The notes under the pieces were generated by a model. That model was given only the letters and a program-made list of their open reading frames with translations. It did not search any database and was not told the DNA's origin. Both the position numbers and the translations under genes were made by a program. DNA of 64,000 nucleotides, taken from Caenorhabditis elegans (lineage: Eukaryota > Nematoda > Chromadorea > Rhabditida > Rhabditidae). The number at the start of each line of letters is the position of its first letter. Positions within the stretch are counted from its first letter, which is position 1. Location of the stretch: the NCBI RefSeq assembly GCF_000002985.6, contig NC_003279.8, positions 12,710,001-12,774,000 of the forward strand, read 5' to 3'. Below are positions 20,178 to 26,400 of the stretch, piece after piece.

Positions 20178-20340
20178 CGTGGAATGGCGGAGCTGCTGAA
20201 AATTTGCACAATTTTAGCTCGATGGCCTGGATTTTCACTCCGGGGTTCGAGTCCCCACTGTGGTCGAAATATTTTTATTGGTTCTTTTTCAATTTTTTTA
20301 GGGTAAACCAAGGGTCCTGAGCTCGAAAATCAACATCTCA
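20178..20340 (+). repeat. SINE-like copy 1 (tRNA-like head plus conserved tail)
   Basis: On the plus strand, an A-box-like TGGCGGAGCTG is followed by GGGGTTCGAGTCCCC (perfect T-arm and B box), then TGTGGTCGAAATATTTTTA, a T-rich stretch and a tail ending GAGCTCGAAAATC. The tail ends exactly at the TRM61 stop codon. Three further copies are at 21581, 21890 and 23557. Confidence 0.7.
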
Positions 20341-23418: not shown

Positions 23419-26400
23419 TCAAATAAATTTAACGCCTTCATTATCTCCACCGATATTCATCAATTGAGCACGTCGTTGCTCTTCCAAACATGTCAACGCT
23501 TTCATCAGAATTTCACGCTCCAAATTGTGGAATGCTGAAAAAAAATTTGAATTTTATATATCGCTTTTCGAGTTCAGCGCATTTGATTTAGTCTTTAGTC
23601 TTTTAACATGCGAAAAAAGCCAGTAAAAATATTTCGACCACAGTGGGGACTCGAACCCCGGTGTGATTTTTCTCCCAGTCGAGCATTTTCGCACTGAGCC
23701 ATTCGGACACTTTTTGCAAATTTTACCAAAAATCCGAAAAAAAGTCAAAATTTTCAAAAAAAAAAAGCCAATTTTTTTTTTGGAAATTTAGGAAAAAATT
23801 CAAAGTTTTTGAGCTCAAAATCGATTTTCAGAACTTTTTTGGTGGAGTTTCTGTTAAATTTTCAAATTTTCCGGTGCTGAGCTCGATTTTCACCAAATTT
23901 CATAGGATTTTCATGCTTTTCATCTGCCTACACTCATTTGTAGTATCATCTCCGTGGGTAATCTCGTATAAAGTGAGTGGTGTATTGATAAATGCATTCT
24001 CAACCGCCCATTGGTAGATCATATTGGCCCAAACATCGGGTCGACGCCAGAAAATGTGGAAACGTGTACGGCCGTTGTCCGTGAATTCGATTAGTTCTGG
24101 AAATGTGGGAAAATTGGGTGAAAAATTGGAATTTTGACATAAAAATCAAGTTTTTTCCTACAAAAAGTGCTGAATTTCGGTGATTTTTGGTTATTTTCTA
24201 GAGAAAAATCGGATAAAAATGCGAAATTTGGGGTTTTTGCCAGAAAATTTGAATTTCCCGCTGAAAATGTTTTTTTTTCAAAAAATTTGAATATATCGCC
24301 AAAAAAATTACTTAAAAATTTGAATTTCCCGCTAAAAATGGTTTTTTTTCAGAAAATTTAAATTTTTCGCTAAAAAATCCTCTATAAAATTTGAGTTTCC
24401 TGTAATAATATTTTTAAAATAAAATTTGAGTTTTTCGCCAATTTTTTTTTGTCAGAAAATTTTGAATTTTATCTTATAAAATACCTTTTTCTTTTTTTTT
24501 CAAAAATTTTGATATTTTTTCCAGATTTTTGAATTTTTTGAGCCAAAAATTTGCGAAAAAAATGTGATTTTTGTGGGAAAATTCTATAAAATTCCAATTC
24601 AATTTTAAAAATTTCAATTTAAATCTTGTTTTTTTTTTCATTAAAATTAAGGAAAAATCTGATTTTTCGGCGATAATCGAGTAGAATTTGGCGTTTTCCA
24701 TAAAAATCTGCTCACTTTTTTGCTCCAAATACTGTAGAACAGTGTTGACACCGTCGGTTGAGAGGCGGCCTGAAAAATGCGTAATTCCCTGAAAATTTAA
24801 GCTGAATATCAGAATTTTTTGGGGGGTTTTCTGGTGAACATAAGTCAAAATTACTCGAATTTTGGTCCTTTCCAGTTAGAAAAAAGTCCAAAATCTCATA
24901 AAAATAGGATTTTTCAGCGAATTTTAAGCTAAAAAACGCTGAAAATCGCAAAATTTGAGTGCAAAAACTCACGATTAAGCTTTTGATTATTGAATAATTC
25001 ACTGGTAGTTGCTTCAGCAATATCCAACGAATAAATCTTATTGTGTTGAGCATAATCAATTACCAAACGAGCCCAGGCTTCAAGTTGCTTGTCTTTTGTG
25101 TTCAAAGACTTTTGAATGCTGGAAATTCGGAAATTTTTTGTGGATTTTGGGCGAAAATCCTCAAAAAATTGGATTTTTAATCTATTTTTCTGCTAAACTT
25201 TCAGGAAAAAATGGAGAAAAATCGTGAAAATTCAGACTTTTTCGCTCCAAAACTGCCAAATTTCGCTTTGAAAATACGGTAATCGGTCTCGAAACGACAT
25301 TTTTTTGTTAAATGCAAAAATACGTGCGCCTTTAAAGTGTACTGTAATTTCTTCGAAATTTTCAGTTGTTTTTCGATAAAAAATATATTATTTAATCGGA
25401 AAAACTGATAAATCACAAGAAAACTATTATTTAGACGTCTAAAAATGACAATTTTTTGCCATATGGGTCTCGCCGCGCGGCTACTGTAGCTCTGTCGATT
25501 TACGGGCCGCTATTGCACCGTAAACCTACACGAGCTACAGTAACCGCGTGGCGAGATGGCGAGCAAAATTTTCATTTTTAGACGTCTAATAGTTTTCTTG
25601 CGATTTTTCCGTTCTTTGATAAATAAATACATATTTTTTATTTAAAAAAAAAATTGAAAATTGCGCAAAAATTACAGTACACTTTAAAGGCGCCCGTATT
25701 TTTGCATATAACAAAAAAAACTTTGTCGTGTCGAGACCAGATACCGTAATTTTCAGCCAAAGTTGGCAGTATTTGGAGCAAAAAAAGCCGAAAAATCGAA
25801 ATTTGCCAATAAAAACCTGATGTTTCCCCATTTTTCCTGTAAAAAACGGGTTTAATCCGGCAATTTTAACAGAAAAATTGCCGGAATTGTTCAATATCTC
25901 CAATATGAATTCACCAGTAAATCTCAATGATATCATAACAGTGATTAACACAGCTGAGAGCGGCGGCGTGAGAGCTTTTCAGAGCTCTTTCTCGTGATAT
26001 TCAGGTGGCTTAAGCTTCACGTCATCTGGTGAGCCAGTGAGAGAGAGAGAGCATTGACACAGTTCACTCGTTTTCGTAGATTTTTCGGCATCTTTTGCCT
26101 TTTTATTGAGCCTTTCAGGCCCTTTTTTAAGCCATTTTCAAACATTTTTAGGCTTAAAATTAGGCCTTTCAAGCTCTTTTTGAGGCTCATAGTTTTCTTT
26201 TTCAAACCAAGCTTTTCTGAGCTTTTGCTGCTCAAACTCAAGTTGCAATTGGTTTAAAATGGAGTTTCAAGCCAATTTCGAGCCTCTTTAGGCTTTTACT
26301 AAGGTTTTTCGATCTAAGCTTTTCTAGCTTAAAACTGAGCTATTTCCTGCTTAATTTTGAGCTTTTCAGACTTAAAATTAAGGCTTTTCAAGCCGAAATA

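What the first reader, a model, noticed from the sequence alone, without database searches (positions are those of the whole stretch)
20178..23710. Four-copy SINE-like family with an intact tRNA T arm and a shared non-tRNA tail
Copies at 20178-20340, 21581-21732, 21890-22041 and 23557-23710 share an A-box-like TGGCGCAGTGG, a well-formed T arm (CGGGG TTCGACT CCCCG), then TGTGGTCGAAATATTTTTAC and a tail ending GAGCTCGAAAATC. Two or more copies with the same tail make this a composite element, not a set of decayed tRNA genes. All four sit in or beside TRM61 and vps-25 within 3.5 kb. SINEs are not prominent in Caenorhabditis as far as I know.
Basis: partly seen in the sequence, partly recalled or inferred. 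Interest (0 to 1): 0.7.

Follow-up and report, generated by a model that had tools for sequence, protein, structure and literature searches.

The report
Tandem tRNA-like repeats, not SINEs
The four copies belong to a large, already noticed family of decayed tRNA-like repeats in the worm Caenorhabditis elegans that appear to spread mainly by local copying of short DNA blocks, not by the RNA route of a SINE, and that probably act as docking sites for a transcription factor on one arm of each autosome.

Summary
In detail: four copies, E 1e-45 to 4e-52, next window hit E 0.12. Correction: copy 1 has no recognisable A-box half. The shared tail is real: 29 of 124 heads examined carry it, 0 of 124 in a reversed control, on chromosomes I and V only. 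SINE is not supported: a T-run (Pol III terminator-like) stands between head and tail in 96 of 99 heads, and 28 tailed copies show no excess of flank repeats and one poly-A. Same-strand neighbours keep register: 53 of 58 spacings under 350 bp are 139-170 or 280-325 bp, and spacer homology near heads is local, as tandem DNA duplication leaves. Of 238 listed exact matches, 236 lie in the pairing-centre-end third of an autosome, like published extra-TFIIIC sites/CeRep3 tRNA pseudogenes (PMC6950938). Best reading: CeRep3-type tRNA-derived units with TFIIIC boxes, duplicated locally. My paper searches showed me no account of the register, tail or terminator placement. CeRep3 sequence identity and TFIIIC binding were not testable.

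The parts
20225..20346 (+). copy 1: 3' half of head plus tail; 5' half not recognisable
20244..20250 (+). copy 1 B-box core GGTTCGA
20272..20276 (+). copy 1 T-run (terminator-like) before tail
   Evidence: family pattern
20310..20331 (+). copy 1 tail motif AAGGGTCCTGAGCTCGAAAATC
21571..21743 (-). copy 2, head plus tail, in an intron of the TRM61-like gene
21712..21722 (-). copy 2 A-box TGGCGCAGTGG
21674..21680 (-). copy 2 B-box core GGTTCGA
21648..21652 (-). copy 2 T-run
21587..21611 (-). copy 2 tail motif
21883..22052 (-). copy 3, head plus tail, same intron, 312-313 bp from copy 2
22020..22030 (-). copy 3 A-box TGGCGCAGTGG
21987..21993 (-). copy 3 B-box core
21961..21965 (-). copy 3 T-run
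21897..21921 (-). copy 3 tail motif
21522..22096 (-). TRM61 intron holding copies 2 and 3 (splice sites read by eye)
   Evidence: boundaries inferred
23549..23723 (-). copy 4, head plus diverged tail, in the last intron of the vps-25-like gene (by eye)
23692..23701 (-). copy 4 A-box variant TGGCTCAGTG
23651..23657 (-). copy 4 B-box core
23625..23629 (-). copy 4 T-run
23561..23584 (-). copy 4 tail motif

Best explanation
The four copies are members of the C. elegans tRNA-derived repeats published as CeRep3 tRNA pseudogenes / extra-TFIIIC sites. Each unit is a DNA block of about 150 or about 300 bp: a decayed tRNA-like head that keeps A and B boxes and a Pol III terminator-like T-run, and in a subgroup on chromosomes I and V a conserved tail after it. 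Units multiply mainly by local tandem and inverted DNA duplication, not by reverse transcription. Shown here: anatomy, tail conservation, T-run position, spacing register, local spacer homology, arm distribution. Inferred: the boxes still bind TFIIIC without Pol III transcription and so mark chromatin on the pairing-centre arm of each autosome; membership of CeRep3 is inferred from boxes and distribution, not from a sequence comparison.
For: T5 run starts 24-28 nt after the B box (10th-90th percentile) and within 45 nt in 96 of 99 heads, against 31% of 2000 random positions. Tail motif at +49 to +77 in 29 of 124 heads, 0 of 124 reversed. Spacing register 53 of 58 under 350 bp; 26 of 26 with narrower bins on the first 100 places; bins were drawn after seeing earlier spacings. 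Spacer homology z>3 in 17 of 28 neighbours about 300 bp apart, window copies 2-3 z=20.9. TRF finds 290-293-bp tandem units on C3. With heads masked, homology under 80 bp from a head is all within one segment and predicts a head in 43 of 45 cases. Nearest relative in the same segment for 64 of 104 heads, shuffled mean 5.7, maximum 17. 323 exact box matches, reversed control 0; 236 of 238 listed lie in the pairing-centre-end third, as published for extra-TFIIIC sites.
Against: 11 of 28 neighbours at ~300 bp and 15 of 17 at ~150 bp show no spacer homology above z 3, so tandem origin there rests on spacing alone. In one search, further from heads the prediction is poorer (3 of 6 at 80-140 bp, 17 of 29 at 140-200 bp). 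Loci on different chromosomes share heads but hardly any spacer, so some dispersal step besides tandem duplication is needed and is unexplained. The tail is not family-wide: 95 of 124 heads do not pass, none on C2, C3 or C4.
Confidence: 0.75

Rival explanations
1. A tRNA-derived SINE: a Pol III transcript of head plus tail copied by a LINE reverse transcriptase.
For: Boxes A and B; shared non-tRNA tail in 29 of 124 heads; loci on different chromosomes share the element but hardly any flank; copy 1 looks 5'-truncated.
Against: T-run before the tail in 96 of 99; longest flank match 6.9 nt against 6.7 nt for mismatched flanks, poly-A in 1 of 28; fixed spacing and shared spacers; 236 of 238 listed matches on one arm per autosome.
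Confidence: 0.12
2. A non-autonomous DNA transposon (MITE) with terminal inverted repeats.
For: An inverted copy of the tail motif (4 of 19 mismatches) lies upstream of copies 2, 3 and 4, and one with 3 mismatches at -129 from the head at C1:12484572.
Against: Distance from the B box varies in the window (-94, -112, -233); elsewhere upstream inverted matches are few and weaker (5 mismatches). No sign of a duplicated target.
Confidence: 0.05
3. Ordinary decayed tRNA genes, tails by chance.
For: ARAGORN calls one tRNA-Arg(TCG) place on C3, seen in L041 and L042, among 23 loci given; Rfam tRNA at 25-27 bits, under the 29-bit cutoff, in three places of L011 and L041 among 12 loci given.
Against: Tail at a fixed place with 0 of 124 in the control. 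In the window ARAGORN and Rfam at gathering scores call no tRNA.
Confidence: 0.05

Closest known systems
CeRep3 repeats at extra-TFIIIC sites (Stutzman et al. 2020, PMC6950938; abstract, section 6, second part of the reference list and passages seen)
   Same: tRNA-like, both boxes, dense clusters, one arm per autosome (right I, left II, III, IV, right V)
   Different: The parts seen describe no tail, no ~150/300-bp register and no terminator placement; CeRep3 sequence not compared; binding at the window copies unknown
CELE45, annotated putative SINE of C. elegans (PMC8457455, PMC6873666, PMC5850821; passages seen)
   Same: Filed as SINE; active copies Pol III bound according to PMC8457455
   Different: [quoted passage not shown] sequences not compared
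mir-1829 Pol III miRNA loci (PMC12157501; outline, abstract, section 9 and passages seen)
   Same: Intronic units with A box, B box and downstream T-run in C. elegans
   Different: There the transcribed hairpin lies before the T-run; here the conserved tail lies after it. No homology tested
Tandem satellite DNA
   Same: Head-to-tail ~290-bp units on C3
   Different: Short, interrupted arrays with inverted blocks; between loci the heads are kept while spacers are not detectable

Membership tests
tRNA-derived SINE | tRNA-like head with A and B boxes | tested here: met
   copies 2-4 in the window, copy 1 not
tRNA-derived SINE | tail inside the Pol III transcript | tested here: not met
   T-run before tail in 96 of 99, judged from sequence only; no RNA data
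tRNA-derived SINE | target-site duplications | tested here: not met
   28 tailed copies, own 6.9 vs cross 6.7 nt; ends uncertain and copies old
tRNA-derived SINE | poly-A or LINE-shared 3' end | tested here: inconclusive
   poly-A 1 of 28; a genome search with the tail found only itself and missed the known tail of copy 3, so it is weak
tRNA-derived SINE | dispersed single insertions | tested here: not met
   clustered at fixed spacing
CeRep3 / extra-TFIIIC site | both A and B boxes | tested here: met
   copy 1 fails
CeRep3 / extra-TFIIIC site | clusters on the pairing-centre arm of autosomes | tested here: met
   236 of 238 listed; compare
CeRep3 / extra-TFIIIC site | sequence match to the CeRep3 consensus | not testable with these tools
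   consensus not held; one paper in the library names CeRep3
CeRep3 / extra-TFIIIC site | TFIIIC bound, Pol III absent | not testable with these tools
   no ChIP data or supplements
DNA transposon with TIRs | terminal inverted repeats at both ends | tested here: not met
   upstream inverted tail near window copies 2-4 and one other head, at varying distance; not found for most heads
tandem repeat array | regular unit with shared spacer | tested here: met
   spacer test fails for 15 of 17 pairs at ~150 bp and 11 of 28 at ~300 bp

The most novel reading that the evidence does not exclude
The pairing-centre arm of each autosome carries arrays of TFIIIC sites held on a ~150-bp (nucleosome-sized) register: spacer sequence has drifted beyond recognition between loci but boxes, T-run and spacing persist, so the spacing itself is maintained, for example to phase nucleosomes or to tether the arm to the nuclear periphery.
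Probability: 0.15. Interest if true: 0.7.

Novelty: new member of a known kind. Interest (0 to 1): 0.42.

Why it matters
It moves the elements from 'possible new SINE' to locally duplicated TFIIIC-type repeats, and gives concrete handles (spacing register, tail subgroup, T-run before tail) for asking why TFIIIC sites gather on the pairing-centre arms of C. elegans autosomes.

Tried and rejected
SINE: rejected on T-run position, no sign of target duplications, little poly-A, and spacing. TIR transposon: inverted tail motif upstream of window copies 2-4 and one other head, at varying distance. RNA function: RNAalifold on 56 heads keeps three pairs, none with a compensatory change, so conservation looks DNA-level. 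Selection on boxes: in 30 local pairs (two of them without a head at the predicted place) boxes A and B are 90% and 85% identical, T-run 86%, middle 79%, 5' flank 75%, best spacer stretches 83%: suggestive at most, and the spacer figure is not below box B. A first spacer scan was confounded by neighbouring heads inside the queries and discarded; one search masks heads. Rfam miRNA hits under cutoff are taken as chance hairpins. A link of the A box to ZIM/HIM-8 motifs was considered from memory; a search for motif letters listed no paper that gave them and the idea was dropped. Rows dropped: 56 of the 59 thinned heads (of 93 scoring 45 or more) were aligned; one search used 99 heads (score 40 or more, 140 bases downstream held); one search used 124 heads; one search used 28 of 29 tailed copies; one search used 104 heads.

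Full report
Setting. The window lies at C1:12,710,001-12,774,000 of a 100,286,401-base, 7-contig genome. That length is the one I recall for C. elegans WBcel235; C1 is then chromosome I and the position is on its right arm.

The four copies. Direct reading, alignment and profile search confirm four related elements; the next window hit has E 0.12. Copies 2 and 3 lie in one TRM61 intron and copy 4 in the last vps-25 intron, all three in the sense of their host gene; copy 1 lies antisense at the end of TRM61. Pfam supports GCD14 and ESCRT-II for four of seven exon-sized pieces given; intron limits are read by eye. Copy 1 lacks a recognisable 5' half.

The family. A blastn search with copy 2 gives 19 places, itself included. 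The tail 25-mer with up to 3 mismatches occurs at 5 places, three window copies and an inverted pair at C1:12.925/12.926 Mb, control 0. Exact searches for the two boxes give 213 (GGCGCAGTG form) and 110 (GGCTCAGTG form) matches, reversed-pattern control 0 for both. Only the first 100 of each are listed; a narrower pattern gives a complete list of 54: C1 15, C2 1, C4 2, C5 36, none on other contigs. Of 238 distinct listed places, 236 are in the third of the chromosome at the pairing-centre end; the two exceptions are at C3:11.25 Mb. Matches on X beyond the cut lists cannot be excluded. The pairing-centre ends are right I, left II, left III, left IV, right V (PMC9071541, passages; PMC6950938).

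Head, T-run, tail. From 63 loci I merged 23 segments (84,981 bp), a sample chosen because it holds heads. A head model finds 126 heads there. In 56 aligned heads 15 columns are invariant, in the boxes and the T-run. A run of five Ts begins within 45 nt of the B box in 96 of 99 heads, against 31% of random positions; the head model included these columns, a mild bias. The tail motif (at most 4 of 17 mismatches) is found in 29 of 124 heads, 18 on C1 and 11 on C5, all at +49 to +77, with 0 of 124 in the reversed control; four of the 29 are the window copies, which also defined the motif. No tail-bearing head is followed by another same-strand head closer than 159 bp, whereas heads clearly without it (6 or more mismatches) are often followed at 134-154 bp.

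Spacing and duplication. Same-strand spacings fall at ~150, ~300, ~450, ~600 bp. In the exact-match lists 53 of 58 consecutive spacings under 350 bp are 139-170 or 280-325 bp; the five misses are 180-196 bp. The bins were drawn, and slightly widened (26 of 26). Some spacings in the list lie outside the 23 segments, so the register does not come only from them. TRF reports 290-293-bp tandem units on C3. Spacer homology beyond z 3 holds for 17 of 28 neighbours at ~300 bp, copies 2 and 3 among them (z 20.9), and 2 of 17 at ~150 bp. With heads masked, homology under 80 bp from a head occurs only inside a segment, and a head sits where predicted in 43 of 45 cases; at 80-140 bp in 3 of 6 and at 140-200 bp in 17 of 29, and three relations to another chromosome at those distances had no head. 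The nearest relative is in the same segment for 64 of 104 heads (shuffled mean 5.7, maximum 17). For copies 2-4 the closest outside relatives are the inverted pair at C1:12.925/12.926 Mb (0.80-0.85 identity); copy 1's closest outside head is at C3:1,048,422 (0.73).

Mobility signs. 28 tail-bearing copies show no excess of flank repeats (6.9 versus 6.7 nt) and poly-A in one. Their ends are uncertain, so this is weak alone, but with the T-run and the register it disfavours a SINE.

Literature. PMC6950938 (abstract, section 6, second part of the reference list and passages seen) reports 504 TFIIIC sites without Pol III, 90% with Box-A and 87% with Box-B, 214 of the 225 repeat-overlapping ones in CeRep3, clustered on the same five arms. 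The listings of searches showed me no paper on this tail or spacing; apart from the papers named in Closest known systems, PMC9071541 and PMC2888827 (passages), I saw listings only, and the library lacks most subscription papers, so earlier description elsewhere is possible.

Reading. Local DNA duplication of tRNA-derived TFIIIC-type units explains the spacing, the tail and the T-run position. What carries heads between chromosomes, and whether the ~150-bp register is inherited or maintained, stays open.

Noticed in passing
21773-21790, 22073-22092, 23870-23892: Inverted copies of the tail motif (GGTGCTGAGCTC-like) upstream of copies 2, 3 and 4, at varying distance.
   Followed up: partly
22768-22815, 22997-23044, 23079-23126: Three copies of a repeat holding GAGCGCGTTTGCA (family D8).
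   Followed up: no
24244-24400: About two tandem copies of a 71-bp AT-rich unit.
   Followed up: no
20184-20203: The A-box-like stretch claimed for copy 1 appears to be TRM61 coding exon and its 3' splice site, read by eye.
   Followed up: partly
C5:20,120,892-20,135,060 and C3:1,575,348-1,577,158 (outside window): Ten divergent head pairs 84-104 bp apart (seven on C5, three on C3), a second arrangement of the same heads.
   Followed up: no
C3:11,254,783-11,254,985 (outside window): The only listed places outside the pairing-centre-end thirds, a pair 155 bp apart.
   Followed up: no
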